The notes under the pieces are model-generated. The model saw nothing but the letters and a program-made list of their open reading frames with translations. It had not been told where the DNA came from and ran no database searches. From the NCBI GenBank assembly GCA_030526155.1, contig JAUNDI010000020.1, positions 1 to 41,401 on the forward strand: a stretch of 41,401 bases of DNA. The letters are read 5' to 3'. Position 1 is the first letter of the stretch. Each line of letters opens with the position of its first letter. The DNA is from Bacteroidia bacterium (GTDB taxonomy: Bacteria; Bacteroidota; Bacteroidia; Bacteroidales; Marinilabiliaceae). Positions 1 to 26,255 of the stretch are shown here, piece after piece. The translations under genes were made by a program, and so were the position numbers.

Positions 1-3000
1 ATATTACCACCTTGGATATCATTCAACTCTATCAAACCATCTTTCTTACCGCTATCGAGACGTATATTCTTTTCTTCAAGACGAATATTTGCAGGCTGTG
101 CAATGGTAAACTCTTTAGTAACATAGCAATCAGTAGAAGAGACAATAGCTCCCTCTTTCTCTACTGCATATACCTTCAAGATATAATCACCAGCATTATT
201 ACCGCCGTCACTAGTAAGTGTAAATGTATGGGTAGAGTATGATGATTTATCGGTAGCCGACTTATCTGCTACCTTCACATATTTCTGTTGTACAGGAGTA
301 GGATCTACTGGTGTACGATTACCATTCTCGTCTACATCATCAGGATTTTTCTTTGACAACTGATAATAATGGTACTTATTATTACCATATAGTACACTCG
401 CAGTAATTGTAGCCACACTTTGATTGCCAACTGTGGTAACTCCGCCTGTTGTGGTAGACTCTTTTGTGTTGTCTGGACACAAGAAATCAGTCTTACTAGA
501 TGACTCAATAACTACCTGTGGCTCAACAACAACATCCTGTTTATCTGGACAAGATATTACTACCTCGTCAACACGACTTACTGTAAAGTCTGTTGTATTG
601 ACCCATCTAGATACATAATGTATGTATAGTGTAGTATTCTCAACTACAGCATCATTAGCAAGTGTAAATGTATGACGATAACTATTACTATTATTTAGTT
701 CTTTCCAATCTGATAATAGGTGTGTAGTACCATCCAAAGTAGCGCCATCAGCAACTACAACTTGGAAGGTGCTCTCATGAGCTCTTGGGTTTTTCTCTGT
801 AGTTACGCTATTCCAACCCCTTGCGTCAGACTTAAGTCCTACGCGAAGTGTATTCTTACAAGGGTCATAAGCGATATCTGTAAGCTCCACTTTGTCAGGC
901 TCATAGATAGTAATATCTGTGGGAGGCGCTTTACATCCCTTTGCATCCTCTACTGTAAGGGTGTACTTTCCTGCCTTAAGATCTGTGAATCTATACTTCT
1001 CTGGATCGCCTTGTGTACCAATAGCTGTAGTACCGCCAAACTCTGTGAGTGTATATGTATAGTTGAGCAGACTCTGACCGGCAACATTACCGCCCGACAT
1101 ATCTGTCACCTCTATCTGTCCATCTTCCTTACCATTACATGTAATATCCTGAACTGCAACACGTTCGATAGTTACAGGTGCTGATGGAGTACCTATAGTA
1201 AATTCGTATGGGTATAGGCATGCGTCGTACCCCTTATATCTTAACCATAAGATATATGTTCCTGCGCGAAGACCCTTTACAGTAAATTTACTCTTACTTA
1301 GCTCCAAACCGCCATCGGTCTTATCTGTTGTTGCCACATCAGAGTATGTATAGTCTACCTCTAGAGGAGTCTTGCCACCTATTACATACTTACCACTTGC
1401 TGTCTGTAGCTTAGTCCAAGTATCGGCATCTTGGGTAATAGATGTAGTAGCAACATCAATAATGAAATCTACCTCACCATCAAATGCCTTATAACCAGCA
1501 TATAATGTAGTAGCTGCATCGTCTTTTGTGTCTGCTACTCTCTTCTCCTCTGCTCTGTTCTTAAGGTGAAGGATGTCAAACACCACCTCACCATCGCTAT
1601 CCAAATAACAGGTAACAGGTGTCTCTACCTTTGATACAGTTGGCTCATAAATAGGATTGATAACAAACTTAACCTCACTACCACATTTACCATTGCCCTT
1701 AGGTGTTACCTTTACAGTATATGTACCACTAGGTAGGCCAAGGACAGAAATCTGGTTATGAGCTCTTGTTATCTCATTACCATCTTTGTCTTTCCAGATA
1801 ATATCACACTCTGATGGAGGAGTTGCCGTTGTGAATGTCAACGATGCTCTACCAGTAACCTCACCTGTAGGTGTTGTAGCACCCTGCTTAGTATAGTCAC
1901 AAGTAAATGTCTCCTCTACATTTACGTAGAACTTAACATAATCTTCTGCTTCTACGTGCAATGTAGCTCCTTGATAGTAACACTGTGTAGATACATCCTG
2001 AATACGGAGCTTATAATACCCCTCTGGCAACTCAGTATATCTATACTCAGTCTTACCTACACCAGGACCATCTGTCATCATGCTAGCGTTAGTAGCCTCA
2101 GAGATCTTACTGAAATTTGTAGCGCTATAGTGCCATTGGTAGTTGTAGCTACTTCTAGTAGTCTCATAATCAGCTACCTCGACATTATCTTCACGAAGAG
2201 AAATTAGTGTTATAGCACCTGTCTTCTCTCCCTTACATGTCTTCACTACGTCAAAGTCATCTTTGAGCATAGTATAGTTAGGTTGCTTCTTAACGACAAC
2301 TTTTCTAACGTAGCCTACATTCTCATTAATCTTTTTGCCATCATCATCTATAGCCCTACGCTCAAAATCCTTACAGTCGATAGTTTGCTTTGTCGACTTA
2401 TCGGCAATAAGTTTCTGTAATTGAGTATCTCTGCCATAGATATCTACATTAGTTGTACCATATTTTACAACATACAACTCTGTAGCATTATAGTAGTATG
2501 TTACAGGTAAGCTTGCTACAATATTCCAACCATCATCAGGAGTATCTGTCTGTGTTATCTTATTTTTAGCATTGTCTTTTACCTGATACTCAATACTCTC
2601 TCTCTGTGTATCAGAACCATTTGCAAGTACCAAGTCGTACTTACTCTTAGAACCTTGCTCAATGGTAAATGTGAAGTATCCAAAGTTCTCCTGAGATAGT
2701 CCTCCCTGACGAGGGAATATCAATCTCTTAGTCAATACATCAAGATTACCTTGAGGATTGTTAGCCCAGTTGGTAAGTAGCTCACCCTTAGTAGCATCGG
2801 CTGTTGATAGATACTCCGGACAATACTTCTCATCAATTTTTGGAAGCATAGCATGGTTTGGTGCTACCAAGTACTGTCTGTGCACAGCTATAGGGCAACC
2901 ACCAAAACTTGCGTCGGCCTCAAAGATGTAGTTGATATTGTATACACCTGGGTCAAGATTCTCTGGATTGAAGTAAAAATCACCAAACGAGTCGTTGAAT

Positions 3001-6000
3001 CTTCCATCAGTTACAACATTTGTGACCTTCTCTCCCTTAGCATATTGTTTGCCATCAACCTCTTTGTCCTTCGTAAATATGAATTGCAAGCCGATGTTAT
3101 CTGTTACACCTGTAACAGTCTGACCTACAGGGTTCTCCTTAGTAATCTGATAGTAACCGTAGCCTGGTACAACTTGGTTACCATTATTTGTAACATTGTC
3201 TGGATACTTACCCAACAACTTTCTAGCACTATTGTAGACACCATTTACGAATGCTCTCTCTTCGTTTGCACCAGTCTTACCCTCTACTTCGAAGTTGGCA
3301 TTTACAATATTTATGATAGTTGTGGTCTTTTGTACCATGTAATTACACTCACTTCCGCCCGCGACAGTGAAATCAAATCGTACAGTAAGAGGCGCGACAG
3401 TAATCGTGGCCCTTCTCACGTAGTTTGTTATGTTAAGTAAACATACCCTACCTACTTCATCCTTCCATGGGTATAGTCGCTCTTCGTCATCATACGTACC
3501 GTCGCCATTGATATCGATATACTTACCATATCCATCAGTATCCTTATCACTATCGAGAGTAAGGTTGTTATTAGCGATACGTTTCCACGAGAGTACATCA
3601 TCGTAACCCTCTTGGTTCAAACTGAATCTACCATCTTGATAACCCTTTGCAGAGTTGTCTATTGCATGGAACTTAATGTACTGCTCATTGTTATACAAGA
3701 CATATCCACCAGTAGGGTCGGTCGACTTAGCACCATTGGTACAATAAGTTGATTTTAAGTCGAGTGTCAATCCTGTATTACCTGGTATCTCGATATATCT
3801 ACAGAATGGTTCGCCGCAACCTTCATAGTAATATACTCGATACATCATACCTGGCTCAAGGTCTATAGTATAGAGGGCAGCATCATTAATATAGTGCGAC
3901 TCTGCACCTGTACCATTGAAGTATCCAGGGATATTAGTCTTGTAGACTTGTTTTACAGGAACCAACTTTCTGTCACCAGGATTCTCTGGATCGGCTGGTG
4001 CCTTAACATTAGGATCTACTGCATGCTCAGGAACTGGCTCAATATAGTAGCTACCTGCTTGAGTACCAGCAATCTCTCTAGCATGGAACTGCAAAATATT
4101 TACTGGCACATATCTGTCATCAGTATTTAAGTCGGCTGCATTGTAACATACTGTCAAGGCTGGAGCTGCAGCCGACATCAAATTACCATCTGCACCAAAC
4201 CATGCAGGATTGCTCACCCAGCCATGGTCGTTTGCCAACTTATCAGCTTCGGTCTTTGTGACAGGGTACTCCTCATCGCCCTCTTTACGAGAATCATAAG
4301 TAGTACCATGGAAGATAGCGAATGGTACCTTACCCTTGGTAACAAATACTGGCCATATCTTTTCTGTGACACAACCACTTGCTTCAGTGAAAGTCCATGA
4401 GAATACATAGATACCAGCACCTGCCTCACCGCCATCAACAGAGAATTCGAATGATGTAGGTTGATTTGGATCATTAAAGTCAAATGTCACATCACCTATA
4501 CCATCACCATCATACTTAATAGTTGGCTTAGCAGTCTCTGAACCACTTGATATCTCAATTAGCTTATAGCTACGATTCTTAGAATCGTTGTCATACTTCT
4601 CAGTCTTATCACCGTATGTAGTATAGTAGATTATCTTATCATAATCCACATTATCCATATCAAGACCAGGGTTCTGCGCCTCATCTATTCTATATATCTT
4701 AATATGAGATGTACCCTTTACACCCTCGTAGTTATAGTCGTGCACATTACCGAACTCATCCTTTAGAGGAGCTTTTGAATAATCTACATTTGGATCATCA
4801 GCAGCTAAGTCGCGTGTAGGATAGTTAATAGTAATGTTAACCTTATTATTATTAATAATATCATCAACACAATATGAGCGTTTCATATTATGTTGTAGCT
4901 CTCTCTCGAATCTATATGTACGACTATATGATGCAGTACAGCCCTTGTTATTACCTCTACACTCACTACCGTTATCAACATTCATAGTGACTGTTTGGTT
5001 CTTACCTCTTGGCATATTTCCTGGGATAAGAACATAGTAATCGTGGCCCTCTTTATTACCTGCATCATCCTTCTTAATCTTCTTAACAAAGTTGTTTGTC
5101 AAGAATTCGTAGTAGTAATCATTAGCATCCCTATCTACCTTATCAAAGATAGACTTAGCGTCCTTTGCGAAGAAAAGACCATCATCCTTAGCTATCTGCT
5201 CAGTCAACAAACTAGATGATAGATACTTCTCAGCACCTGTCTTATTGACCTTATAATGATAGTAGCTCTCACGTACTGCATTTATCTTCTCAATAGCACT
5301 TTGGGTATTACCTGTTGTAACGACCTCAAGAGTCATCTCAACCTTTACGATAATACCTGCTATACCAACAGCATCTGTACTTATATTATATGTTGTTCCC
5401 CAAGGAGTACGGCCTGATACAGTTCCATCATTGGCTGTGCGTAGGAATACAACATCCTTATATACGCCATCTCTATTATGAGTAGCTGGTACTGTAATAG
5501 CCTGATTTCTATAATCAGGATAAGGCTTACTTGCAATCCACTCTACTTGGTCGGCCTTCTCCTGTGCGATAGAGCTAGTGTAGCGCAATTTTGGAGTATC
5601 ATCACTATTGTATTGATACTTATATACGTAAGGTACAAGCTTATACTCCTTATCATCGCCCTCGCAAATATAATCCTCAGAATAGCCGGCTTGGAAATCA
5701 TCTGGCAAGCCCTCAGCTACGAAGAATACCTCATTATCTATTGGTTGATAGAGATACGATGTGAATTTCTCTTGATATGTACACCCTGTAGCGCCTACAT
5801 GATACTCGTACGTCCACTCAATAGGTACACCATTACCATTACCTCTGTGTCTTGTAAGTGGACTGAAAGTATATGAATATGTCTCACCCACCTCACCAGT
5901 ATCAAAGTCGGGCCACATAACACCCTCTGCCAATAGCTTACCATAGCCACCATTCTCTACATCAGGTCTATTAGGTATACCTGTAATGGTTATTGGGTCA

Positions 6001-8402
6001 TTAGTACAATAACACTTCTGAGCATCAATACTTATGTAGTTCTCCCACTTCTTATTGACAGTCATCAAGCCAACAGTAGTGAATACGTCAGGACACATTA
6101 CCGCCTTGAAGCGTATTCTATATGTGGTACTATTGGCATTATTATGAGTCAACGTAGGGACAAAACCAGGCTTTACCAAAGCGATATACTCAGCATCGAT
6201 ACCATCTGGCTTAAAGATTCTTGGGTCAAACTGGTCGGTAGGTATAGGCTCATCTTTGCCATTTACCTTTCTAGTCTGAAGCTGCAACTTACCAGCAGCA
6301 TCGTAGTACGTCTTATATATAGGTAGAAGGTCGTTCTGATTTTTACCCTCTATATAATAGGTACCATCACCAGGATAGAAGTACTCGCGTAGATTAACAG
6401 GATCAGAATCCTCACAGATAGACCACTTAGGGTCGTTCTGATCTATCTTAAGCTTTGTAGTATTTGGACGGATGATCAATGTAAAATCTTGAGTCTCAGA
6501 AGTACAAGCCTGAGGGTTGGTCTTATCCTTAGCCACTACATAGTAATGGTATTCATAATTACCATCTGCATTAAGATTTCCTCTCTTATCTTCAGGAATA
6601 CGCGCCTCTAGATAATAGTCGGCTCCCACATTTACCGTCTCACCCTTAGCATTAGTAGCATACCAATAATACTCGAGTTTCTCATCAGGCACACCATTAC
6701 CATTGGCTGCAGCATTCAGTACTACCTGCTCACCCTCACATACTATCTTATCCAAGCCCTCGGCTGATGACTTAATAGTAACAATAGGCTTATCAGGACG
6801 TGGTGCAACCTCGAAAGATATACGTTTTGTCTGACAAGAGACCACTGTCTCGCTGGCAGCCTCGACCCATATCTCATATTTACCCGTCTTTACACCATAA
6901 TCAGAGGCTTTAAAACTATAGGCAAATTGATAATCTGTGTTTCTAGTAATTTTAGCACTATTGGTCTGACCAGGTATATTATAATACTCTGTCTTGTCAA
7001 CACCTGTACCTACAATGCGAACCTTAAAGCTGTGAGGTTGTCCTATATCCTTAAGGAAGGTAATGGATGAAGTAATCGCATTATCTAATTGGTCAATACA
7101 GTAGTAGTTACCCTCGAGAGACGATGTAATATCAGGGTCATACTGACGTTTATATACCTTTATCTCATCAGAAGGCGAATTAGCAGAACATCCATAGGCA
7201 TTCTTCGCATATACGCGATATGTACCCTCCTTGATATTCTGATATGTTACAACACCTGCACCACCTACCTCTGTGATATTGGTATTATTAGAACCAATGA
7301 GGGTATATGTAGATTTACCATCAGTAGGCACTACAACATCCACACCATTATCACCACAGTAGTAGAATGTACGATCCACAAGCTCTGGCTTCTTAGGCTT
7401 AGCAGGCACTAAGACTCCATCAGAAGGGTTAATCAATGTTCTACATGCATTACCCGCATCCTCTCTCTGGGCATAGACATAATACTTTATATTCTTACCC
7501 TCTTCAGAGGTCTTAAATCCAAAATCGACTGTACCACCATTACTCTTCTTCTGAGCTATAATACCGCCGACACCATTTTCATCAATTGCCTCTAGGAGGT
7601 ATAGTGTGTTAGGAGTGGTACCTGTTACTTGAATTCTATACTGACATTCATCGCCAGTAGCAGAGACTTCCAGTCTTGCGCCACCTTGATTATTTAAGCC
7701 TCCAGCAGCGATAGTCAATGAACCTGAGACGTCACCTGTAATTGAACAGCCTACTACCTGCGCCTTAACAGTATAGACGCCTGGGGCAGGGTCCCACCCA
7801 AGATTAAACGACACACTTCCTTGAGCATTATTAGATGTCTGAGTATACATATACTGACCATCTCTAAAAAGATGATATTGCACATTATGCTCAGCATTCT
7901 GAACCCAAAGCAACTTGTTTTGCAAGTTATTACCCTCCTTACAGAGCACTTGCGATCCAATAGTCGTAATACCACTAAGTCCACTTACAGTAAATACGGC
8001 AGACTGGTTTACAGTTCTCCAATTGTTACCATTTTCGTTGTTATTACACTCGACTACGTAACGACCCTTCTCATTTACAAAGAAGAGCATATCAGCATTA
8101 GAGGCAGAAGCTTGCACTTGATTTACCCTCTGGCCATTTGCCGACTGCGCAAAATTAACAATAGCGTTAGTTTCAAGATTTCTAACCCTATACCAATAGC
8201 CCTCGCGTGTACCATTGATGGTTATATGGGTAGCAACATCACCTGCGCAGCCAGAGGTATTGCCCGTCAGCGTCTGCGCCCAGCCATCAAAACCCATCAA
8301 AACCACCGCAGCAAATACCGCAATGACCCTGCAAAAACACTTCACAACTAAACTAGACTTCTCAAAAAGCCTTAAATTCTCAATATATAATCTCTTACTC
8401 AT
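1..8402 (-). CDS. Giant secreted Ig-like / SprB-repeat adhesin, 3' end outside window
   Basis: A single minus-strand frame stays open from the ATG at 8402 to the window edge, giving at least 2800 codons; the stop lies beyond position 1. The N-terminus has a basic stretch, a hydrophobic core near residues 26-38 and a likely signal peptidase site after WAQ (residue 43). Residues about 45-2050 are a chain of beta-rich domains, many opening with a Cys followed by acidic or Gly/Asn residues (for example YYCGDNG near 7355, IVCEGEQ near 6740, SICEDSD near 6415, YICEGDD near 5665, SYCVDDI near 4870), the look of Ig-like domains in large Bacteroidota surface proteins. Residues about 2053-2492 hold four SprB-like repeats. 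No enzyme motif was seen. By family knowledge such proteins are T9SS cargo and act as adhesins; the C-terminal sorting domain that would prove this is not in the window. The exact product is unknown. Confidence 0.88.
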   Translation of the reverse strand, partial: MSKRLYIENLRLFEKSSLVVKCFCRVIAVFAAVVLMGFDGWAQTLTGNTSGCAGDVATHITINGTREGYWYRVRNLETNAIVNFAQSANGQRVNQVQASASNADMLFFVNEKGRYVVECNNNENGNNWRTVNQSAVFTVSGLSGITTIGSQVLCKEGNNLQNKLLWVQNAEHNVQYHLFRDGQYMYTQTSNNAQGSVSFNLGWDPAPGVYTVKAQVVGCSITGDVSGSLTIAAGGLNNQGGARLEVSATGDECQYRIQVTGTTPNTLYLLEAIDENGVGGIIAQKKSNGGTVDFGFKTSEEGKNIKYYVYAQREDAGNACRTLINPSDGVLVPAKPKKPELVDRTFYYCGDNGVDVVVPTDGKSTYTLIGSNNTNITEVGGAGVVTYQNIKEGTYRVYAKNAYGCSANSPSDEIKVYKRQYDPDITSSLEGNYYCIDQLDNAITSSITFLKDIGQPHSFKVRIVGTGVDKTEYYNIPGQTNSAKITRNTDYQFAYSFKASDYGVKTGKYEIWVEAASETVVSCQTKRISFEVAPRPDKPIVTIKSSAEGLDKIVCEGEQVVLNAAANGNGVPDEKLEYYWYATNAKGETVNVGADYYLEARIPEDKRGNLNADGNYEYHYYVVAKDKTNPQACTSETQDFTLIIRPNTTKLKIDQNDPKWSICEDSDPVNLREYFYPGDGTYYIEGKNQNDLLPIYKTYYDAAGKLQLQTRKVNGKDEPIPTDQFDPRIFKPDGIDAEYIALVKPGFVPTLTHNNANSTTYRIRFKAVMCPDVFTTVGLMTVNKKWENYISIDAQKCYCTNDPITITGIPNRPDVENGGYGKLLAEGVMWPDFDTGEVGETYSYTFSPLTRHRGNGNGVPIEWTYEYHVGATGCTYQEKFTSYLYQPIDNEVFFVAEGLPDDFQAGYSEDYICEGDDKEYKLVPYVYKYQYNSDDTPKLRYTSSIAQEKADQVEWIASKPYPDYRNQAITVPATHNRDGVYKDVVFLRTANDGTVSGRTPWGTTYNISTDAVGIAGIIVKVEMTLEVVTTGNTQSAIEKINAVRESYYHYKVNKTGAEKYLSSSLLTEQIAKDDGLFFAKDAKSIFDKVDRDANDYYYEFLTNNFVKKIKKDDAGNKEGHDYYVLIPGNMPRGKNQTVTMNVDNGSECRGNNKGCTASYSRTYRFERELQHNMKRSYCVDDIINNNKVNITINYPTRDLAADDPNVDYSKAPLKDEFGNVHDYNYEGVKGTSHIKIYRIDEAQNPGLDMDNVDYDKIIYYTTYGDKTEKYDNDSKNRSYKLIEISSGSETAKPTIKYDGDGIGDVTFDFNDPNQPTSFEFSVDGGEAGAGIYVFSWTFTEASGCVTEKIWPVFVTKGKVPFAIFHGTTYDSRKEGDEEYPVTKTEADKLANDHGWVSNPAWFGADGNLMSAAAPALTVCYNAADLNTDDRYVPVNILQFHAREIAGTQAGSYYIEPVPEHAVDPNVKAPADPENPGDRKLVPVKQVYKTNIPGYFNGTGAESHYINDAALYTIDLEPGMMYRVYYYEGCGEPFCRYIEIPGNTGLTLDLKSTYCTNGAKSTDPTGGYVLYNNEQYIKFHAIDNSAKGYQDGRFSLNQEGYDDVLSWKRIANNNLTLDSDKDTDGYGKYIDINGDGTYDDEERLYPWKDEVGRVCLLNITNYVRRATITVAPLTVRFDFTVAGGSECNYMVQKTTTIINIVNANFEVEGKTGANEERAFVNGVYNSARKLLGKYPDNVTNNGNQVVPGYGYYQITKENPVGQTVTGVTDNIGLQFIFTKDKEVDGKQYAKGEKVTNVVTDGRFNDSFGDFYFNPENLDPGVYNINYIFEADASFGGCPIAVHRQYLVAPNHAMLPKIDEKYCPEYLSTADATKGELLTNWANNPQGNLDVLTKRLIFPRQGGLSQENFGYFTFTIEQGSKSKYDLVLANGSDTQRESIEYQVKDNAKNKITQTDTPDDGWNIVASLPVTYYYNATELYVVKYGTTNVDIYGRDTQLQKLIADKSTKQTIDCKDFERRAIDDDGKKINENVGYVRKVVVKKQPNYTMLKDDFDVVKTCKGEKTGAITLISLREDNVEVADYETTRSSYNYQWHYSATNFSKISEATNASMMTDGPGVGKTEYRYTELPEGYYKLRIQDVSTQCYYQGATLHVEAEDYVKFYVNVEETFTCDYTKQGATTPTGEVTGRASLTFTTATPPSECDIIWKDKDGNEITRAHNQISVLGLPSGTYTVKVTPKGNGKCGSEVKFVINPIYEPTVSKVETPVTCYLDSDGEVVFDILHLKNRAEEKRVADTKDDAATTLYAGYKAFDGEVDFIIDVATTSITQDADTWTKLQTASGKYVIGGKTPLEVDYTYSDVATTDKTDGGLELSKSKFTVKGLRAGTYILWLRYKGYDACLYPYEFTIGTPSAPVTIERVAVQDITCNGKEDGQIEVTDMSGGNVAGQSLLNYTYTLTEFGGTTAIGTQGDPEKYRFTDLKAGKYTLTVEDAKGCKAPPTDITIYEPDKVELTDIAYDPCKNTLRVGLKSDARGWNSVTTEKNPRAHESTFQVVVADGATLDGTTHLLSDWKELNNSNSYRHTFTLANDAVVENTTLYIHYVSRWVNTTDFTVSRVDEVVISCPDKQDVVVEPQVVIESSSKTDFLCPDNTKESTTTGGVTTVGNQSVATITASVLYGNNKYHYYQLSKKNPDDVDENGNRTPVDPTPVQQKYVKVADKSATDKSSYSTHTFTLTSDGGNNAGDYILKVYAVEKEGAIVSSTDCYVTKEFTIAQPANIRLEEKNIRLDSGKKDGLIELNDIQGGN
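906..2245 (-). repeat. Four tandem SprB-like protein repeats inside the giant adhesin
   Basis: Four consecutive segments share a pattern: an opening V/I-T-C or K-T-C, a stretch with G-x-I/V, a G/E-L-x-x-G-x-Y-x-L/V block, and a closing Cys. Approximate cysteine pairs are C2056-C2141, C2168-C2240, C2265-C2395 and C2422-C2490 of the protein. The last copy is closest to the classical SprB repeat (ITCNGKEDGQIEV ... LKAGKYTLTVEDAKGC). The copies have diverged strongly at DNA level, so this is an old domain array and not a recent tandem duplication. The paired cysteines could form one disulphide per repeat; that is inference. Confidence 0.6.
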
Positions 8403-8464
8403 AGAGGAAATAGTGTCTAAATCCCAAAAAAATGTATATCTTTGCACTACATAGTAGCGACAAA

Positions 8465-8481: not shown

Positions 8482-8585
8482 GTTCGATTTTCTCTTTTGT
8501 TACATAGAAAACGGGAAATACATAGAAAAATCGGTTTTTCACCAATAAACCATACATCCAACATCTAACCTACAAAAACCACATC

Positions 8586-8800: not shown

Positions 8801-8810
8801 CCCACCTCAT

Positions 8811-8840: not shown

Positions 8841-8892
8841 AAATTGCCCCAAAAAAATAACAGCCTATGACATCAGGTGTGTATCCTTGCGT

Positions 8893-15534: not shown

Positions 15535-18500
15535 GTGACAAGAATTAGTCATCGGATATATAAAATGGTCATGATGCCCCTCTTAGCCCTCATAGGCTTT
15601 GGGGGGCAGAGTGGCGTTTGGGCCCAAACGGATACGTTGTCATTACGATATCCTATTCCCGACATACCATCTCATGGTGATACATACACAGTATCGCCTA
15701 TTGACCTATCAGGACCAGATAATCTTGGATATTCTGCGGTATATGACGCCTTGTCGGGTACCGTTACCATTTATCGCAAGATAGGAGGCATGAATGTACG
15801 TCTCCCTTACACTATGACATTTGAAGAGTATCAGAACGAGAGGACACGTCGCTCTATGCTCGAATATTGGCTTCAGCGCTCACAGGACGAGTCGCGAGCA
15901 CAACATAACGCCTCGTCTGAAGAAAATGGCGAAGGCGAAACAGACAACAACTCAATACTCAACTCGAAATGGCGCATAAACTCCGACCTATTCGCTAGTA
16001 TATTTGGCTCTAACCAAATAACGATGAAGTTACAAGGTCAAGCTAAGGTATCTATGGGAGTTCAGGTTAACAAGATAGATAACCCAACGATGCAAGAGAG
16101 GATGCGCAAGACCACCTCATTTGACTTCAACCAATCTGTACAGATGAACCTAAACTCACAGATTGGAGAGCGAATGAAGTTGGGCATCAACTATAATACG
16201 GAAGCAACGTTTGACTTCGAGAACGAGGTTAAACTCGACTATACGGGTACAGAGGATGATATTATCCAAAATATTGAGGCAGGTAATATCACATGGTCTC
16301 TACCAGGAACACTTTTACAAGGCTCACAATCGCTATTCGGCTTTAAGATGGACATGAAGTTTGGACGTCTTAAGGTGTCTACTGTTTTCTCGCAAAAAAA
16401 GGGAGAGACAAAGTCGATGACGATACAAGGAGGAGCCACAAAGAAAGACTTTGATATAGACATTACAAATTATGAGCGTAATAGGCACTTCTTCCTTGCG
16501 CACTATTTCAAGGATATGTATGACGACGCCCTACGTGCATTGCCATATGTAAATTCGCCTATTGTAATCAACAAGATAGAGGTATGGGTAACCAATAGAA
16601 CAGGCAACTATAATAACACCCGAAATATTATAGCCTTTACAGATATTGGTGAGAATAGGAAGAGCGATATGCAGTCGCCCTCTCAATGGAGTACTTCCAA
16701 TATGCCTGTACCATCGAATGATGCCAATGACATATATGAGAAATTAACATCCACAATACTCCCCTCTCGTTCGATAAATGATTTTACGACAACCATGTCG
16801 TCTTATCCACAACTTAGGACGGCTCGTGATTATGAGAAGATGGAGAATGCTAGGATGTTGAATACAAATGAGTATACCCTTAATGAGAAATTGGGATATA
16901 TCTCATTGGCTCAACCATTGAACAATAATGAGGTATTGGCAGTAGCATTCCAGTATACATATAGAGGACAGACATACAAGGTAGGTGAGCTAACTACAGA
17001 TGGAGTAGATGCACCACAGTGCTTGGTATTGAAGATGCTTAGAGGTACAATGTTGACCCCTAAATTTATGGCTTGGGACTTGATGATGAAGAATATCTAT
17101 AGCCTAAGTTCGTACGATATCCAGCAGAAAGATTTTGACTTGAATATTGTCTATTGTTCTGATTCTACATCAAACTATGTAAACTATCTATCAGAGGGAG
17201 AGCGACCAATGTATGGAGGGCATAATGGTGAGACCTTCTTGCAGATAATGGGCTTTGATAGGTTAAACTCAACAAATGACGTAGCCCCAGATGGCAAGTA
17301 CGACTTTGTAGACGGCATAACCATAGATGCTAGTAAAGGTAGGATTATATTCCCCGTACGTGAGCCATTTGGCGATGCTATGGCGAAGAAGATAGGAGAC
17401 AATAGAATCGGTGAGAAGTATGCTTTTCGTGCTCTGTATGACTCTACACAGGTATTTGCTAAACAGCAGACTAGCAAGAATAAGTTTAGGTTGAGAGGTA
17501 CATACTCCTCCTCGTCATCTTCAGACATCTCGCTTAATGCATTTAATATAGCTAAGGGATCGGTAAGTGTAACGGCAGGCGGACAGATACTGACAGAGAA
17601 TGTAGACTACTCTGTCGACTACCAACTAGGCCGTGTAAGGATACTTAACCAGAGCTTGCTTAACTCTGGTCAGGCTATCAATGTACAGTATGAGAATGAG
17701 AGTGCTATAACGACCCAGACCCAGACTATGGTGGGAGCACATCTTGACTATGAGATATCTGACAATTGGAATATTGGGGCTACTGTAATACATATGAAAG
17801 AGCGCCCATTAACCAATAAAGTCTCATATGGCGATGAGAGTATCTCAAATACCATGCTTGGATTTAATACCGAGTTCAAGAGAGACTTGCCATTCATTAC
17901 CTCGGCATTAGATGCATTACCTATGTTATCTACGAAAGAGATGTCTACAATCACCGTTGAGGCGGAGATAGCCAAGTTGATAGCAGGGCATACTAAGACT
18001 ATCAATGCTGCATATATTGACGACTTTGAGGGCTATAGTATTACATATGATATAAAGAACTGGACAGCTTGGCATTTGGCATCTAAACCACAAGGGCAAC
18101 CAGACATACTACCAAATGCCGATTTGACCAATGATCTATCGCAAGGATTTGATAGGGCTAAGTTGGCTTGGTACACTATAGACCCATTGTTCTTACGCTC
18201 TATGACTACAACACCTAGACATATTAAGAACGACCCAGAGCAGCAGTCGTCTCATTATGTCCGTGAGGTCTATGAGGAGGAGCTATACCCAAATAAAGAG
18301 AGTGCATACGGCGAGTCTACCAATATACCAGTACTTAACTTGGCATATTATCCAGACGAGAGAGGGTCGTACAACTTTACTACAGACCTTGACAAAGATG
18401 GACATCTGAATGACCCAGAGACCAAATGGGCAGGTATCCAAAGAAAGTTGGAGACGACAGACTTTGAGTCGGCAAACATAGAGTATATCCAATTTTGGAT

Positions 18501-21500
18501 GTTAGACCCATTCATATATAAGAGAGATAAGACCAATGTGGGAGGTGACCTCTATTTTAATATTGGTAATATCTCAGAAGATGTATTGAAGGACTCTAGA
18601 AAATCTTTTGAGCACGGATTGCCTACCCCAGGAGAGCCTTGGGACGTAGACTCTACTATGTGGGGCTATGTACCAAGAAACAACTCATTGGTAAACGCCT
18701 TTAATACTGACCCTGCCTCTATGAGAGCGCAGGATGTGGGACTTAATGGTATGCCATCGTCAAAAGAGCGCGAGTTTTACAATTCGCCAAACTATCCATA
18801 TATGACCCTCATTAAAGGCATGCATGATAGAGGTGAGTTGACTGACGAAGCATATGAAGCGATATACAATGACCCTGCTGCTGACGACTACCACTACTAT
18901 AGAGGTGGAGACTATGATGAGCAGAAGGTATCTATTTTGGACAGATACAAGAGATTCAACAATACAGAAGGCAACTCATGCCCTTCGGAATATTCCCCTG
19001 AGGCATACTCTACAGCCGCTTGGTCGCGCCCAGATAATGAGGATATGAATAACGACTATACTCTTAGTGAGACAGAGAATTATTATCAGTATAGGGTATC
19101 AATACATCCAGACTCCATGGTAGTTGGTAAGAACCATATTGCCGATAAGATGGAGACAGTGGTAAAGCTACGTAATGGCAAGACCGAGCGTGTACATTGG
19201 TATCAGTTTAAGATTCCTATCTCTTCGCCACAGAAGGTGGTAGGAGACATTACAGATATGTCTTCGATGCAGTTTATCCGTATGTTCCTTACGGGCTTTG
19301 CGGACACCTGCATTATGCGTTTTGCTACACTAGACCTTGTAAAAAGCGATTGGCGAAAGTTTACAGACCACCTTTACGAGGAGTCGTCTAACCCAGTAGC
19401 ACATACTGAATTCATCACCTCTACAGTAAATATAGAGGAGAATGACCGACGTGTGCCTGTGAACTATGTATTACCTCCAGGTATAGATAGAACGGTTGAC
19501 CCTTCGAACCCACAGTTGAGACAACTAAATGAGCAGGCATACTCGCTAAAGGTAGTTAACCTTGGCAATGCAGATGCAAGAGCTGTGTATAAAGTACTCA
19601 ATATGGACCTACGTCAATATAGGAGGCTCAAGATGTTTGTTCATGCGGAGGCTGTGGAGGGATATCCGCTTGAGGATAACCAGGTATCTATGTTCATTAG
19701 GTTAGGATCTGATTATGTAGATAACTTCTATGAGTATGAGATACCACTAGCGTTGACGCCTCATGGTACATATCAGAGCAGCAATGAGACAGACCGATAT
19801 GTAGTATGGCCAGAGAGTAATGAGCTAGACATACCACTAGAACTATTTACCAAGTGCAAGCTATCTAGGAATGATGCTAGGAAGAGTAGTAATATTACCC
19901 TTCAAGATGTATATTCTATGGCAGACCCTAGCAAAGTGAACAACAGAGTACGCATTAAGGGAAATCCATCCCTAGGAAATGTTGTAACGATGATGATAGG
20001 CATAAGGGCACATGGAGCAGGACTTAAGTCGGCAGAGATATGGGTAAACGAGTTGCGCCTTACTGAATTTAACGAAGATGGAGGTTGGGCAGCAAGAGGA
20101 AGGACTACCATAAAGCTAGCCGATTTAGGCTCGGTATCGGCATCAGGGCAGTATGCCTCGGTAGGGTTTGGTTCTATAGACCAGAGTGTACAAGAGAGAT
20201 TGATGAATGAGAATGCCCAATTTGACGTCACGGCGAATATAGAGCTAGGCAAGCTACTTGGGCAGAAGTCGCGCATGTCAATCCCATTTTATGCTGGATA
20301 CTCTAAGAAGGTATCTACACCAGAGTATTCACCATACGATAGTGATGTGAAGTTAAAGACGGCACTAAATAATGCAGACACTAAGTCGGAGCGAGACAGC
20401 ATAAAGAATGTATCTCAGACTATAGAGACTACCCGTAGTATAAATGTGACGAATATGCGTTTGAAGCCAGCGACAGGAGCAGGGGCTAAGAAACCGACTA
20501 TGATATCGCCTACTAACCTATCCGCTACATATGCATATAGCGAGATAAAGAAGAGCGACCCAGAGACAGAGTACGATATAGCCAAAGACATTAATGCCCA
20601 ATTGGCATATAACTATACATCTTCGCCTAAGCCATTTGAACCATTTAAGAAGACGAGTATAGATGCAAAGAAATTTGGCATATTAAAAGAGTTGGCATTC
20701 TATCCACAGCCATCATTATTAGCATATAGATTAGTTGTAGATAGAGACTATCAAGAGATACAGAAACGCAATGTCAATAACCCTGCATACATTGTGCCTA
20801 TATCTTACTCGCAAAATTTCAATATGAATAGGTATTTTGACTTCAAGTATAATTTGACCAAAAACCTACGATTCTCATTGAATACTAGCATTAGTGCTAG
20901 AGTTGATGAGCCTAATGTGCCTGTGAATAAAGATAAGTTTAGAGAGGAGTATAAGCATTGGCGAGATTCGGTATGGACCAATGTGCTGAAGTTTGGTCGT
21001 GCAACTGACTATCAGCATACGGCAGATGTGAATTGGACTATTCCTATCAATAAGTTACCATACCTAGATTTTGCAACAGCTACGGCACAATATAAAGCTG
21101 TATATACATGGAAAGCAGAACCACTAGGAAGTCAGTACGACTGGGGAAATACTATCTCCAATAGACAGACAGAGCAGTTGACAGGTATGTTGAATCTGCA
21201 GACCATATATCAGAAGTCGAGCACATTGAAAGATTTGTATCAGCGATATAATTTCTCATCTAGCAATAGACAGACATCAAAACCATCTGGAGTTAGAACG
21301 GAGCGTTATGTCCAGAATAATGTTCAGATAGAGAAAGGCAAACCTACAACGATAAAACATAATCTGGGCACAACGGATGTCACCATTCGAGTTTTTGATG
21401 CAAATGGTAGAGCTGTGAAGGGTACACTAACACCAGTAGATGATAAGACAGCCAAATTCACAGCCAACGCCAATGTACCTAGTGCAAGAGTGGTAATAGT

Positions 21501-22947
21501 AGGTACCGTAGTAGATAAGCGTTCGCCGGCACAAGTGACGAAAGATGTAGCATTGCAAGTATTGACAATGATAAAGAGTATATCTGTAAGCTATACAGAG
21601 AACAACTCGACTACCTTGCATGGCTACTTACCAAATGTGCATTTTGCGGGATTGGACGACTATAATGGCAAGAGTGCTCCAGGCTTTGCCTTTATTGCTG
21701 GTGTACAAGATAGGAACTTTGCCCGTAAGGCGGTTGATAATGGGTGGATAACATCAGACACTACATTGAACGAGCCATATCTGATGACGCATAATGACAA
21801 CTTGCAGGTAAGAGCCTCTATGGAGCTATTCAAAGCCTTGAAGGTGGAACTCAATGCGCAACGTTCGCATGACAAACGTCTATCAGAATATTATGTCTTT
21901 AATGCGGCAGGATTTGACGGGGTATATAACACTATAGAAGGTGGAACATACTCTATGACTATTAATGCCTTTGGCACATCATTCAAGACGCCACAGAAGA
22001 AAGGCACATTGGATGGTGAGCTATATGATGAGTTCCTATTGTCAAGAAGACAAGTTGCGAATCGCTACTCTGAAGAGAGTAGGAGATTATCTGCTGTAGC
22101 TACACAAAATGGAGGAGTAGCCAACAGCGAGGAGCAATCGTCTGTAGACGGTTATGGCTTAACATCCCAGCAAGTACTTGTGCCAGCATTTGTTTCGGCC
22201 TATGCTGGAATAGATGCCAAAACGGTATGGCTAGACGTAGTACCTTCGGCCAAGTTTATGAGGCCGAATTGGAAAGTAACCTTTAGTGGCTTGAATAATA
22301 TTAAGTCGTTAAAAGATTATGTACGTAATTTGGAGATTTCGCACGCATATACGGCAAAGTTCTCCATTGGTCAATACCAAACAAATCTTGATTGGGACAA
22401 TACTGGAGAGACCGCGATACGCGATTTACAAGGGAACTATGTGCCTAAATATGCAGTGACAACTGTTACTATTGCGGAGCAACTAAACCCATTAATACAG
22501 TTGAGTGCGACCTTTGTGAATAATATGACGACCACATTCGGCATAAATAAGCAACGTACGTTGGCTCTCTCTCTTGCAAACAATCAGATTACGGAAACGT
22601 ACTCTAAAGATTGGAACCTCTCTTTAGGATATCGTTTTGATAATGTACCAATATTTGTGGGTAAAGACGAGGGGGCGAAGAAATTTAATAATAGTTTGAA
22701 TTTGACATTCACGCTATCACAAAGAGACTCGTATACTATACTTAGACGTATAGAGGAGATGAGTTCTGAGTTGGCATCAGGAACGAAGACGACTAATATT
22801 AAATTCTCTGCTGATTATGCATTTACACGTCGATTCAATATGGAGTTTTACTATGACCAAGCCATAGCTAAGCCATATGTGTCGACAAGTTACCCAACGA
22901 GCAATACAAATGTTGGTATTAGTTTCCAACTCTCATTGTCAGAATAA
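15535..22947 (+). CDS. sprA: T9SS outer-membrane translocon SprA/Sov
   Basis: At 2470 residues this matches the size of SprA (Flavobacterium) and Sov (Porphyromonas), the very large beta-barrel through which T9SS cargo crosses the outer membrane. Typical blocks are seen: an N-terminal SprA segment about residues 210-330 (KLGINYNTEATFDFENEV, then IEAGNITWSLPGTLLQGSQS), a later DYEISDNWNIGATVIHM region, DDFEGYSITYDIKNW, and alternating beta strands to the end (GISFQLSLSE). The start codon is GTG at 15535. The alternative ATG at 15565 would remove the basic residues in front of the hydrophobic core, so GTG is preferred; the signal peptide would be cleaved near VWAQ. The next gene, tsaE, begins 2 nt after the stop. 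No other T9SS core gene (porK-N, porV, porU) is in the window. Confidence 0.93.
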   Translation: MTRISHRIYKMVMMPLLALIGFGGQSGVWAQTDTLSLRYPIPDIPSHGDTYTVSPIDLSGPDNLGYSAVYDALSGTVTIYRKIGGMNVRLPYTMTFEEYQNERTRRSMLEYWLQRSQDESRAQHNASSEENGEGETDNNSILNSKWRINSDLFASIFGSNQITMKLQGQAKVSMGVQVNKIDNPTMQERMRKTTSFDFNQSVQMNLNSQIGERMKLGINYNTEATFDFENEVKLDYTGTEDDIIQNIEAGNITWSLPGTLLQGSQSLFGFKMDMKFGRLKVSTVFSQKKGETKSMTIQGGATKKDFDIDITNYERNRHFFLAHYFKDMYDDALRALPYVNSPIVINKIEVWVTNRTGNYNNTRNIIAFTDIGENRKSDMQSPSQWSTSNMPVPSNDANDIYEKLTSTILPSRSINDFTTTMSSYPQLRTARDYEKMENARMLNTNEYTLNEKLGYISLAQPLNNNEVLAVAFQYTYRGQTYKVGELTTDGVDAPQCLVLKMLRGTMLTPKFMAWDLMMKNIYSLSSYDIQQKDFDLNIVYCSDSTSNYVNYLSEGERPMYGGHNGETFLQIMGFDRLNSTNDVAPDGKYDFVDGITIDASKGRIIFPVREPFGDAMAKKIGDNRIGEKYAFRALYDSTQVFAKQQTSKNKFRLRGTYSSSSSSDISLNAFNIAKGSVSVTAGGQILTENVDYSVDYQLGRVRILNQSLLNSGQAINVQYENESAITTQTQTMVGAHLDYEISDNWNIGATVIHMKERPLTNKVSYGDESISNTMLGFNTEFKRDLPFITSALDALPMLSTKEMSTITVEAEIAKLIAGHTKTINAAYIDDFEGYSITYDIKNWTAWHLASKPQGQPDILPNADLTNDLSQGFDRAKLAWYTIDPLFLRSMTTTPRHIKNDPEQQSSHYVREVYEEELYPNKESAYGESTNIPVLNLAYYPDERGSYNFTTDLDKDGHLNDPETKWAGIQRKLETTDFESANIEYIQFWMLDPFIYKRDKTNVGGDLYFNIGNISEDVLKDSRKSFEHGLPTPGEPWDVDSTMWGYVPRNNSLVNAFNTDPASMRAQDVGLNGMPSSKEREFYNSPNYPYMTLIKGMHDRGELTDEAYEAIYNDPAADDYHYYRGGDYDEQKVSILDRYKRFNNTEGNSCPSEYSPEAYSTAAWSRPDNEDMNNDYTLSETENYYQYRVSIHPDSMVVGKNHIADKMETVVKLRNGKTERVHWYQFKIPISSPQKVVGDITDMSSMQFIRMFLTGFADTCIMRFATLDLVKSDWRKFTDHLYEESSNPVAHTEFITSTVNIEENDRRVPVNYVLPPGIDRTVDPSNPQLRQLNEQAYSLKVVNLGNADARAVYKVLNMDLRQYRRLKMFVHAEAVEGYPLEDNQVSMFIRLGSDYVDNFYEYEIPLALTPHGTYQSSNETDRYVVWPESNELDIPLELFTKCKLSRNDARKSSNITLQDVYSMADPSKVNNRVRIKGNPSLGNVVTMMIGIRAHGAGLKSAEIWVNELRLTEFNEDGGWAARGRTTIKLADLGSVSASGQYASVGFGSIDQSVQERLMNENAQFDVTANIELGKLLGQKSRMSIPFYAGYSKKVSTPEYSPYDSDVKLKTALNNADTKSERDSIKNVSQTIETTRSINVTNMRLKPATGAGAKKPTMISPTNLSATYAYSEIKKSDPETEYDIAKDINAQLAYNYTSSPKPFEPFKKTSIDAKKFGILKELAFYPQPSLLAYRLVVDRDYQEIQKRNVNNPAYIVPISYSQNFNMNRYFDFKYNLTKNLRFSLNTSISARVDEPNVPVNKDKFREEYKHWRDSVWTNVLKFGRATDYQHTADVNWTIPINKLPYLDFATATAQYKAVYTWKAEPLGSQYDWGNTISNRQTEQLTGMLNLQTIYQKSSTLKDLYQRYNFSSSNRQTSKPSGVRTERYVQNNVQIEKGKPTTIKHNLGTTDVTIRVFDANGRAVKGTLTPVDDKTAKFTANANVPSARVVIVGTVVDKRSPAQVTKDVALQVLTMIKSISVSYTENNSTTLHGYLPNVHFAGLDDYNGKSAPGFAFIAGVQDRNFARKAVDNGWITSDTTLNEPYLMTHNDNLQVRASMELFKALKVELNAQRSHDKRLSEYYVFNAAGFDGVYNTIEGGTYSMTINAFGTSFKTPQKKGTLDGELYDEFLLSRRQVANRYSEESRRLSAVATQNGGVANSEEQSSVDGYGLTSQQVLVPAFVSAYAGIDAKTVWLDVVPSAKFMRPNWKVTFSGLNNIKSLKDYVRNLEISHAYTAKFSIGQYQTNLDWDNTGETAIRDLQGNYVPKYAVTTVTIAEQLNPLIQLSATFVNNMTTTFGINKQRTLALSLANNQITETYSKDWNLSLGYRFDNVPIFVGKDEGAKKFNNSLNLTFTLSQRDSYTILRRIEEMSSELASGTKTTNIKFSADYAFTRRFNMEFYYDQAIAKPYVSTSYPTSNTNVGISFQLSLSE

Positions 22948-24593: not shown

Positions 24594-26255
24594 ATGAGCG
24601 AAGATATACAAAATAATATACCTCAAGAGGAGAATAACACACCTATTGAGTCAGCACAAATACCTCAAGAGTTAGAGATTGTCCAGCGCTTAGTTGAGCA
24701 ATCTAAGCAAGAGCAGAGTCAGACTGCTGAGGAAACAGCCATTGACAACTACGATGCAGAGTCGGACGACGATGATGATTCGACAGACGACAATGATAAA
24801 GTAGAGGGCTTTAAGTCGGCATTCAAATCAGCAGACTCTGTAGACGATGATGAAGAAGAGACAGAGGCACGAGCTCCACAAGCAAAGAAATATGCCTTTG
24901 ATCAACCAGTATCTGAGATTCTTGCGGGTCTTCGTCCTGCTACTCCTAGCTGTTGTGGCACCTCATCAGTTAGAGGAGGCAAGCTACATGTGTATGATTG
25001 GCTAGAGGATTTACCAGAGCCTCCTGGGGCTTCAGATTTGGTAGAGGTACAATTTAAGAATACACGTAAGTCGTACTACCGCAATCAGTCGGGAGTTCAA
25101 CTACATAAAGGAGATATAGTAGCGGTAGAGTCGTCGCCAGGACATGATATAGGTGTAGTGACACTATCTGGTCGCTTAGTATATCTTCAGATGCACAAAT
25201 ATCATATTAACCCTGCTACCTATGAGTTTAAGCGAGTTTATCGTATAGCTCGCCCAACAGATATAGAGAAGTGGGAGGAGGCCAAGAGTCTTGAGCAAGC
25301 GACTATGCTTGAGAGTCGTCAGATAGCTGAGCGACTCAACCTTAATATGAAAATTGGCGATGTAGAGTATCAAGGAGATAGGACCAAAGCTATCTTCTAC
25401 TACATAGCAGACGAGCGTGTGGACTTCCGTGAGCTTATTAAGGTATTGGCAGATCGTTTCCACGTACGTATTGAGATGAAGCAGATAGGTGCACGACAAG
25501 AGGCTGGTCGCATTGGAGGTATTGGTCCTTGCGGTCGTGAGCTATGCTGCGCATCATGGATGACAAATTTTGTATCTGTTACTACACATTCGGCACGTGT
25601 ACAAGATTTGTCATTAAATCCGCTCAAGTTGGCGGGACAGTGCGGAAAGCTAAAGTGCTGCTTGAACTATGAGCTTGATGTATATCTTGATGCAATACAA
25701 TCATTCCCTCCAACAGATAAGCCATTAGAGACAGCAGAGGGTACATACTACTTCTTTAAGTATGATATCTTCAAGCACTTGATGTGGTATTCGCCTCAAA
25801 AAGATACACCAGTAAATATTGTTGCTGTTGATGCTGACCATGTTCGTGAGATTCAGGAGATGAATGCTAATGGACAAAAGCCAAAAGAGCTAGGAAGTTC
25901 TGAGCAGGTAGCAGTATCAGAGGATATGGGCTACTCGAATGTGGTAGAGCTAGACGACTTGACCCGTTTCGACAATAAGAATAATCGTCGTAATGGCAAT
26001 CGTAGTAGAGGCGGCAACAACAGAGGCGGCAATAATAGAGGTGGCAATTCGCATCGTGAGAATCGTGACCAGCAAGCTAATGGCGCTAATGCCCAGCAGA
26101 ACGGTCAGCGTCGCAATGATGCCCCACAAGGACAAGAGCGTCGCAATAACGACAGAAGAAACAATAATGGAGGTAATAACCGTCCATTCAATCGTAATAA
26201 CCGTCCAAATAACAATGGCGGCAATCGAGAAGGCAATAATAGACCTCAACAATGA
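24594..26255 (+). CDS. ricT: PSP1-domain, RicT/YaaT-like protein with acidic head and Asn/Arg/Gly tail
   Basis: Residues about 110-400 match the PSP1 / RicT (YaaT) family: VEVQFKNTRKSYYRN, a central LEQATMLESRQIAERLNLNMKI, then GRIGGIGPCGRELCCASW and GQCGKLKCCLNYE. In Bacillus the related RicT carries an Fe-S cluster and, with RicA and RicF, assists RNA processing; the conserved cysteines here (near 25530-25555 and 25640-25665) would suit a cluster. The Bacteroidota role is not established. The first 100 residues are strongly acidic (a DDDDD run near residue 60). The last 95 residues are low-complexity Asn/Arg/Gly with RGGNN-type repeats, which suggests RNA binding. The gene overlaps gldH by 4 nt (ATGA). 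Confidence 0.8.
   Translation: MSEDIQNNIPQEENNTPIESAQIPQELEIVQRLVEQSKQEQSQTAEETAIDNYDAESDDDDDSTDDNDKVEGFKSAFKSADSVDDDEEETEARAPQAKKYAFDQPVSEILAGLRPATPSCCGTSSVRGGKLHVYDWLEDLPEPPGASDLVEVQFKNTRKSYYRNQSGVQLHKGDIVAVESSPGHDIGVVTLSGRLVYLQMHKYHINPATYEFKRVYRIARPTDIEKWEEAKSLEQATMLESRQIAERLNLNMKIGDVEYQGDRTKAIFYYIADERVDFRELIKVLADRFHVRIEMKQIGARQEAGRIGGIGPCGRELCCASWMTNFVSVTTHSARVQDLSLNPLKLAGQCGKLKCCLNYELDVYLDAIQSFPPTDKPLETAEGTYYFFKYDIFKHLMWYSPQKDTPVNIVAVDADHVREIQEMNANGQKPKELGSSEQVAVSEDMGYSNVVELDDLTRFDNKNNRRNGNRSRGGNNRGGNNRGGNSHRENRDQQANGANAQQNGQRRNDAPQGQERRNNDRRNNNGGNNRPFNRNNRPNNNGGNREGNNRPQQ
25960..26252 (+). repeat. Low-complexity Asn/Arg/Gly coding tail
   Basis: The 3' end of the PSP1 gene codes repeated RGGNN, NRGG, RRN and NNRP units. 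At DNA level the repeat is imperfect (recurring GGCGGCAA and CGTAATAA pieces), so it is prone to length change. Such tails are typical of RNA-binding or phase-separating proteins. Confidence 0.6.

What the first reader, a model, noticed from the sequence alone, without database searches (positions are those of the whole stretch)
1..8402. Giant multidomain surface protein of at least 2800 residues, unterminated in the window
One minus-strand frame runs 8.4 kb without a stop, with a signal peptide at its start, a long chain of Cys-marked Ig-like domains and SprB-like repeats. It lies 7 kb from sprA, the channel that exports such proteins. No domain resembled an enzyme, so it may be a new gliding- or adhesion-type filament protein of this genus. 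Each domain is divergent from the next, so the architecture is not a simple repeat array.
Basis: partly seen in the sequence, partly recalled or inferred. Interest (0 to 1): 0.72.

Follow-up and report, generated by a model that had tools for sequence, protein, structure and literature searches.

The report
Giant gliding-type adhesin with swapped tips
The window holds roughly the first fifth of a gene for a giant bacterial surface protein (about 11,000 to 16,000 amino acids in close relatives), most likely a long sticky filament pulled along the cell surface by a gliding motor in uncultured gut bacteria; its inner stem is conserved, while the much longer outer part looks swapped between species.

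Summary
Real: a minus-strand frame runs from the contig edge to base 8402, 2,800 residues (longest in 200 shuffles 224). The window is a whole contig of a 91%-complete Bacteroidales assembly, so the gene is cut; the rest was not found there. In eight same-genus genomes the frame is unbroken at 11,430-16,328 residues: Ig-like tip, 63-78 SprB-like units, 19-21 units of a second repeat, PKD domains, type B type IX secretion (T9SS) signal. A PorP/SprF carrier gene follows in 12 of 12 relatives checked, with an invariant tail cysteine; two other carriers of this genome lack it, and GldK has the matching Arg-Gly-Cys-Phe. GldD, GldH, GldL-N, SprA and a GldJ just below cut-off are present. No PorE-like match lies beside it, unlike the genome's other large type B locus. 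Most likely a track-tethered gliding adhesin (inferred; no motility data). The last ~1,730 residues agree with chromosome markers; the distal ~9,700 do not, with a sharp step, suggesting block replacement. Giant T9SS proteins and SprB are known: new variant.

The parts
3..8402 (-). 5' part (2,800 codons) of the giant surface-protein gene, cut by the contig end; eight relatives continue to 11,430-16,328 residues
8274..8402 (-). signal-peptide-like N-terminus (residues 1-43, hydrophobic core then ...GWAQ|T); cleavage site by inspection only
1503..8273 (-). distal 'tip' region of divergent, partly Cys-marked, Ig-like beta domains (residues 44 to about 2300); borders by inspection
   Evidence: model of one domain
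7689..7970 (-). the Ig-like domain modelled (94 residues, pLDDT 69, six strands)
1044..1157 (-). SprB-like repeat (PF13573 match, P0001 residues 2470-2507; 24.2 bits, below the cut-off of 28), near the start of the SprB array that continues beyond the contig in relatives
15535..22947 (+). sprA, T9SS outer-membrane translocon (TIGR04189; matches F. johnsoniae SprA in the PDB)
26252..26719 (+). gldH lipoprotein (TIGR03511); not specific to gliders, the control Bacteroides ihuae has it too

Best explanation
The window encodes the N-terminal, outermost fifth or so of a single-polypeptide surface filament of about 1.2-1.8 MDa. Proposed working: Sec exports it (inferred from the signal-peptide-like start); the T9SS (SprA, GldK-N) moves it across the outer membrane, recognising the C-terminal type B domain; the PorP/SprF protein encoded directly downstream receives the C-terminus and holds it at the surface, so the N-terminal Ig-like part is the far tip. 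The carrier's tail cysteine (KPVPC[ST]EPIMGYSY) forms a disulfide with the Arg-Gly-Cys-Phe cysteine of GldK in a GldJ/K/N track, and the GldL/M motor drags the filament along the cell, so that cells glide when the tip binds a surface, as with SprB/SprF of Flavobacterium johnsoniae. Shown by sequence (C-terminal features in relatives only): architecture, gene order, carrier family, tail cysteine, machinery genes, conserved stem. Inferred: export, orientation, disulfide, movement, adhesion. In addition the distal ~9,700 residues look to have been replaced as a block between species while the stem stayed.
For: Type B CTD sequence at the end of all 9 relatives read to the 3' end (8 of them among the PF13585 matches, G017 not being in that search), and at the ends of 3' contigs of G008, G002 and G007. 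PorP/SprF directly downstream in 12 of 12, three of them on contigs that hold only the 3' part (TIGR03519 confirmed for 2 of 2 scanned). Tail cysteine in 12 of 12 carriers, absent from the tails of the 3 other carriers looked at (2 own, 1 G013). Own GldK has RGCF. A disulfide between the SprF tail (Cys-X-Cys) and the GldK RGCF cysteine is needed for gliding in F. johnsoniae (PMC12635249, passages and outline). There, moving type B substrates lack a PorE-like neighbour and the static one studied has it (PMC12618676, passages); here a PorE-like query matched 0 of 12 giant 3' flanks but both copies (2 of 2) of the other large type B locus. Own GldJ 443.8 bits (cut-off 458.2; GldK model 232.7); GldD 14 of 15 and GldM 14 of 15 genus genomes; gldK, L, M, N operon. 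Distal swap.
Against: No motility or expression data. The window's own C-terminus and carrier were not found in its assembly. The carrier tail has one cysteine, not the Cys-X-Cys that is invariant in close SprF homologs and of which both were needed for gliding in F. johnsoniae. GldJ is below the curated cut-off in 14 of 15 genomes in the six-frame search, and the GldJ match of G003 and GldM match of G005 each span one stop. SprC, SprD, GldA/F/G, GldB, GldI and PorG were not tested. The gene was not found in 2 of 15 genus genomes (G005, G014, 85% and 81% complete). The type A signal model PF18962 also scores above cut-off in G010 (40.5 bits), but at internal repeats and with no stretch passing alone. 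The PorE test used one query, and four of the 12 3' flanks reach only about 2.1-2.4 kb past the giant. Synonymous change is near saturation, and the tip tree's tests are weaker (p 0.007 and 0.032) with a long-branch warning.
Confidence: 0.66

Rival explanations
1. A static surface adhesin: exported by the T9SS and held by the PorP/SprF carrier, but not pulled by the track; it works as a very long tether to fibre, mucus or other cells.
For: Type B substrates can be statically anchored (PMC12618676, passages); the carrier tail has a single cysteine rather than Cys-X-Cys.
Against: No PorE-like match beside it (0 of 12 3' flanks, one query, four flanks only about 2.1-2.4 kb long); tail cysteine in 12 of 12 while the 3 other carriers looked at lack it; GldD present and GldJ just below cut-off.
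Confidence: 0.22
2. A predatory grappling hook like GhpA of Aureispira: a multimeric hooked filament that catches prey cells.
For: GhpA (5,898 residues, PDB 9flp) is the best PDB match of the C-terminal 4,800 residues of relative G010 (E 6e-64), through three stretches of 278-343 residues of the stem repeat (72.5, 92.1 and 52.1 bits), lying before the C-terminal domain as here. The hook protein is T9SS-secreted and its owner glides (PMC11205867, passages; GhpA named in PMC13319060, passages).
Against: The CTD itself matches weakly (11.9 bits); one more stretch, in the PKD-like part, gives 21.8 bits and the remaining ones 12.9 or less, so the kinship shown is mainly of a repeat type, which from memory is common in Bacteroidota surface proteins. 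The window's own part has no PDB match at E 0.1. TssC (PF17541) of a T6SS was found in 0 of 15 genus genomes, but the controls gave nothing either, so that shows little.
Confidence: 0.08
3. For the swapped tip: no replacement by recombination; the distal part simply diverges faster in some lineages (selection by phage, host or competitors).
For: Distal pS is near saturation in the pairs computed (G010-G013, G010-G009, G001-G006, window-G008), so a recombinant and a fast-evolving block cannot be told apart by synonymous change.
Against: G010-G009 are 0.62-0.67 identical in the distal part, 0.66 in the stem repeats and 0.76 at the C-terminus, so the distal part is not loose in every lineage; yet the closer pair G010-G013 is 0.35-0.37 distal and 0.74-0.84 proximal, with a jump from 0.39 to 0.71 between adjacent 100-residue bins. 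Stem and two distal slices reject each other's grouping (AU p 1.3e-7; 4.6e-35 and 3.8e-8; groups named after seeing the identities).
Confidence: 0.2
4. Assembly artefact or frameshifted chimera.
For: The contig ends inside the repeats; the last residues of G008's frame, next to its contig end, look like edge noise.
Against: Unbroken frames of 11,430-16,328 residues in 8 other assemblies with the same architecture.
Confidence: 0.01

Closest known systems
SprB / SprF of Flavobacterium johnsoniae (gliding adhesin of 6,497 residues, PMC9870892, passages, and its carrier)
   Same: SprB repeats, type B CTD, PorP/SprF carrier gene directly downstream, carrier with conserved tail cysteine, GldK RGCF, GldD/GldH/GldK-N/SprA and a GldJ-like protein in the genome
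   Different: About 1.8-2.5 times longer; single tail cysteine in a KPVPC[ST]EPIMGYSY tail instead of Cys-X-Cys; a stem of 19-21 other repeats plus two PKD domains; sprC/sprD not searched for; uncultured Bacteroidales; distal part apparently replaced between species
16,944-residue giant protein of Kordia antarctica (PMC7477175, passages)
   Same: Size class, signal peptide, gliding-associated C-terminal domain TIGR04131
   Different: More than 100 Calx-beta repeats instead of SprB and stem repeats; no specific function assigned there
GhpA grappling-hook protein of Aureispira sp. CCB-QB1 (PDB 9flp and others, 5,898 residues)
   Same: The stem repeat type near the C-terminus; T9SS secretion; size class
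   Different: No strong match to the SprB part and none to the window part; heptamer and hook not testable here
Static type B locus Fjoh_3952/3951/3950 (PMC12618676, passages)
   Same: Type B CTD with PorP/SprF carrier
   Different: No PorE-like match at the giant; a PorE-like (PD40-OmpA) gene is present at the genome's other large type B locus, contig C43

Membership tests
T9SS type B substrate | C-terminal type B domain (PF13585/TIGR04131) | tested here: met
   In relatives, above cut-off (G010 44.6 bits of 27; 8 full giants plus 3' ends of G002, G008, G007). Not readable in the window's own copy, which is cut.
T9SS type B substrate | N-terminal Sec signal peptide | tested here: inconclusive
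   Hydrophobic stretch by hydropathy and inspection; no predictor run.
T9SS type B substrate | Adjacent PorP/SprF carrier gene | tested here: met
   12 of 12 relatives whose 3' flank was available; family model confirmed for 2 of 2 scanned. The window's own 3' flank is missing.
T9SS type B substrate | T9SS machinery in the same genome | tested here: met
   SprA, GldK, GldL, GldM, GldN above cut-offs in the window's genome.
SprB-type gliding adhesin | SprB repeats (PF13573) | tested here: met
   385 and 309 bits in relative G010; 24.2 bits, below cut-off, in the window's part.
SprB-type gliding adhesin | Carrier C-tail Cys-X-Cys that bonds GldK | tested here: inconclusive
   One invariant tail cysteine in 12 of 12, but not the Cys-X-Cys pair; so it is not filed as an SprB ortholog.
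SprB-type gliding adhesin | GldK RGCF cysteine | tested here: met
   Own GldK has NRGCFVA.
SprB-type gliding adhesin | GldD in the genome | tested here: met
   Above cut-off in the window's genome, 14 of 15 genus and 63 of 65 family genomes.
SprB-type gliding adhesin | GldJ track protein in the genome | tested here: inconclusive
   Best model of the own protein, 443.8 bits, under the 458.2 cut-off; 1 of 15 genomes over the cut-off in six frames; two non-gliders ring below the cut-off through shared domains.
SprB-type gliding adhesin | sprC and sprD in the operon | not tested
   No model searched.
SprB-type gliding adhesin | Moves on the cell surface; needed for gliding | not testable with these tools
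   -
GhpA grappling hook | Sequence kinship along the protein | tested here: inconclusive
   Mainly stem repeats; no PDB match for the window's part.
GhpA grappling hook | T6SS partner in ixotrophy | tested here: inconclusive
   0 of 15 with PF17541, but no control rang.

The most novel reading that the evidence does not exclude
A motor-driven, hundreds-of-nanometres-long gliding adhesin in uncultured gut Bacteroidales in which a stem of nearly fixed length (19-21 repeats, each position individually conserved across two genera) is kept with the chromosome, while the outer ~9,700 residues are exchanged between species as a block: an interchangeable-tip system that lets gliding cells change what they grip, or escape phage or rivals, without changing the motor coupling.
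Probability: 0.4. Interest if true: 0.75.

Novelty: new variant of a known kind. Interest (0 to 1): 0.56.

Why it matters
Gliding is studied mainly in Flavobacterium and its kin. A giant adhesin shared by most genomes of a gut Bacteroidales genus, with the track-tether cysteines, predicts surface motility in a group for which my searches turned up only a few papers, and gives a concrete test through the carrier-GldK disulfide. Contigs of the same lengths as those of G001, G006 and G013 are named MAGs from horse faeces, so the setting is a fibre-rich gut. A stem whose repeat number and order are nearly fixed while the outer part is exchanged would also be a clear case of a giant repeat protein that evolves by block replacement and not by gain and loss of repeats.

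Tried and rejected
Tried without result: finding the rest of the gene in the window's own assembly; family names for the window part in NCBIfam (none) and PDB relatives (none); a single-sequence model of four tip domains (pLDDT 45, not used further); dN/dS as a test of replacement against fast divergence (pS near saturation; dN below dS throughout); a T6SS test without a working control. Considered and rejected: chance frame; enzyme (no catalytic domain found); RTX or autotransporter type adhesin (C-terminus is a type B CTD); repeat array that grows and shrinks (unit order fixed). The 5' neighbour differs: dprA lies in 9 of 11 relatives' 5' flanks, not in the window or G008. I first thought this supported replacement and dropped it, because an inversion with a breakpoint upstream of the giant explains it as well.

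Limits: repeat models were built from the giants themselves, so counts are within-family. In one search two of nine species (G003, G011) were dropped because they have 20 and 21 units. AU tests were run on groups chosen after seeing the identities, without the mixture model, and warns of long branches (G013, G011). The PF13585 list was cut, so it does not show the largest protein of each family genome. G008's stem (contig C192) and tip (contig C140) are taken as one gene by inference only. Literature: a library of open papers; searches. One search (giant T9SS adhesin with recombination and repeat) gave 0 papers, (gliding motility, Bacteroidales, SprB, gut) 2. No paper was read whole.

Full report
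Observation. The window is the whole of contig C59 of a 2.6-Mb, 91%-complete assembly. One minus-strand frame is open from base 3 to 8564; comparison with the nearest relative, G008, puts the start at 8402. In 200 Markov-1 shuffles of the region the longest frame was 224 codons.

What the gene is. A search of 41 genomes found the protein in 13 of 15 genomes of the genus, own included, and 21 of 41 overall; outside the genus and genome G017 the hits lie only in the SprB-like part. I fetched the loci and read the frames. Eight relatives have the frame closed at both ends: 11,430 (G010), 11,947 (G004), 11,978 (G001), 12,021 (G009), 12,072 (G006), 12,539 (G003), 13,491 (G013) and 16,328 residues (G011), 1.24-1.77 MDa, pI 4.4-4.7. 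G017, of another genus, has 11,075 residues, open at its 5' end. G008, G002, G012 and G007 are cut by contig ends. The parts beyond the window's contig were not found elsewhere in its assembly.

Architecture from relatives: signal-peptide-like start; Ig-like tip; 63-78 SprB-like units; 19 units (7 of 9 species; 20 and 21 in the others) of a stem repeat with a C...G.W...G.N.F.W pattern; two PKD domains; CHU_C type B T9SS domain (PF13585 44.6 bits, cut-off 27). The unit counts come from self-built models. Pfam was run on 9,300 of G010's 11,439 residues; it also gives whole-protein scores above cut-off, with no stretch passing alone, for BiPBP_C, Y_Y_Y, GBD_IRG7_N and the type A signal PF18962, all at internal beta repeats. 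The stem repeat matches GhpA of Aureispira in the PDB.

Neighbours. A PorP/SprF gene follows the giant directly in 12 of 12 relatives with a readable 3' flank (TIGR03519 for the two scanned). Its C-tail carries an invariant KPVPC[ST]EPIMGYSY in 12 of 12; the carriers at contig C43 and in the gldK operon of the window's genome, and the C43-like carrier of G013, have no cysteine in the tail (the last cysteine of the gldK-operon carrier aligns before the final strand). The window's genome has GldK with NRGCF, GldL, GldM, GldN, SprA and GldH in the window, GldD and a GldJ (443.8 bits, cut-off 458.2). GldD is in 63 of 65 genomes of the family. Of the 14 control genomes, which include Bacteroides ihuae, 0 have GldD or GldM; GldJ rings below its cut-off in Caulobacter vibrioides and Methanosarcina acetivorans; GldH rings in B. 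ihuae, so it is not telling. In oral bacteria GldJ was reported in 3 genera and GldD in 4, against 8 for GldH (PMC11705866, passages).

Mechanism. In F. johnsoniae the SprF tail Cys-X-Cys bonds GldK at an Arg-Gly-Cys-Phe cysteine; without it adhesin movement is short and sporadic and gliding on agar is lost (PMC12635249, passages and outline). Type B substrates there divide into moving ones, not in operons with a PorE-like gene, and one static one with such a gene next to its carrier (PMC12618676, passages). At the giant a PorE-like query matched 0 of 12 3' flanks, which reach about 2.1-13.9 kb past the giant, four of them only about 2.1-2.4 kb; the second large type B locus has PorP/SprF and a PD40-OmpA protein in sequence in 2 of 2 genomes looked at. 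Both criteria place the giant with the moving class, with the reservation that its carrier tail has one cysteine. SprB filaments are given as about 200 nm (PMC12635249); scaling by length suggests about 350-500 nm here (inference). Type B substrates stay bound to their carrier at the surface (PMC10202324, PMC12635249, passages), so the N-terminus, the part in the window, should be the far tip (inference).

Evolution. Across 21 pairs of the 7 species with 19 stem units, the best match of a unit was the unit in the same position in 397 of 399 cases; same-position identity 0.56, other positions 0.32, within one protein 0.32 (G003 and G011, with 20 and 21 units, were dropped). So units are individually conserved and not homogenised. 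Identity along the protein: G010 and G013, close by flanking genes (ThiL 0.94, RuvA 0.92), are 0.35-0.37 in the distal part and 0.74-0.84 in stem and C-terminus, with a step from 0.39 to 0.71 at residue 9,700 of G010; G010 and the more distant G009 (0.81, 0.63) are 0.62-0.67 distal, 0.66 and 0.76 proximal. Markers GldJ, GldM and GldD give the order window+G008, then G013, G010, G009. The stem tree joins G010 with G013 and rejects G010+G009 (AU p 1.3e-7); its other forks are partly unresolved. Two distal slices join G010 with G009 and reject G010+G013 (p 4.6e-35 and 3.8e-8). The window's tip is 0.77 identical to G008, 0.30 to G013, 0.37 to G010, against 0.98/0.92, 0.94/0.90 and 0.89/0.84 for GldJ/GldM; the tip tree rejects window+G008+G013 (p 0.007) and, less clearly, the five-species clade (p 0.032), with a long-branch warning. 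As a check made after the idea, G008's 3' contig was fetched: its stem is 0.80 to G013 and 0.78 to G010, as block replacement predicts. Synonymous sites are near saturation and do not decide; the groups tested were chosen after seeing identities.

Known and new. Giant proteins with the gliding-type C-terminal domain are known (Kordia antarctica, 16,944 residues, PMC7477175, passages), SprB is the type case, and gliding-associated transcripts are reported for unclassified cockroach-gut Bacteroidales (PMC10266427, passages); a termite-gut Bacteroidales with complete T9SS was judged likely non-motile for lack of SprB and RemA (PMC12483993, passages). Not found in print by my searches (open papers only): the nearly fixed stem, the exchanged distal block, and the single-cysteine carrier tail; the last was not searched for on its own beyond. 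Taxonomy below Bacteroidales was not resolved; contig lengths tie G001, G006 and G013 to MAGs from horse faeces.

Noticed in passing
window 8814-8835, 8897-8918, 9147-9168, 11409-11430: Four copies of a 22-base palindrome GAGCCTTTTCA[TC]GAAAAGGCTC between genes, three of them upstream of the giant (0 in shuffles); exact copies in none of 123 other loci held, the one locus with it, L002, being the window itself. REP-like or terminator-like.
   Followed up: partly
G000 contig C43 (L076:181-17981): A second large type B CTD protein (3,406 + 1,398 codons, frame lost at a run of N) followed by PorP/SprF, a PD40-OmpA (PorE-like) protein and a 203-aa protein; frames of about 4,000-7,000 residues with a type B CTD, perhaps the same protein, in several relatives (only G013's was compared).
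   Followed up: partly
window 8403-9600 and relatives' 5' flanks: Upstream of the giant lies xylulokinase in the window, a 338-aa frame and then xylulokinase in G008, but dprA in the 5' flanks of 9 of 11 relatives, suggesting an inversion breakpoint upstream of the giant.
   Followed up: partly
window 13382-15526: S46-type dipeptidyl peptidase: 856 bits to the Dpp7 model, under its 1,200-bit cut-off.
   Followed up: no
window 11604-13340: 578-aa protein with a hydrophobic N-terminal half by inspection and a response-regulator match below cut-off, between xylulokinase and the peptidase.
   Followed up: no
family f1 (65 genomes): The genus has 3-5 type B CTD matches per genome against 4-20 in the rest of the family: few cargo genes kept, one very large.
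   Followed up: partly
G001 and G006 giants: The outer parts of these two are more alike (tip 0.84, SprB array 0.77) than their stem repeats (0.61), the reverse of most pairs: perhaps a recent exchange of the outer part.
   Followed up: no
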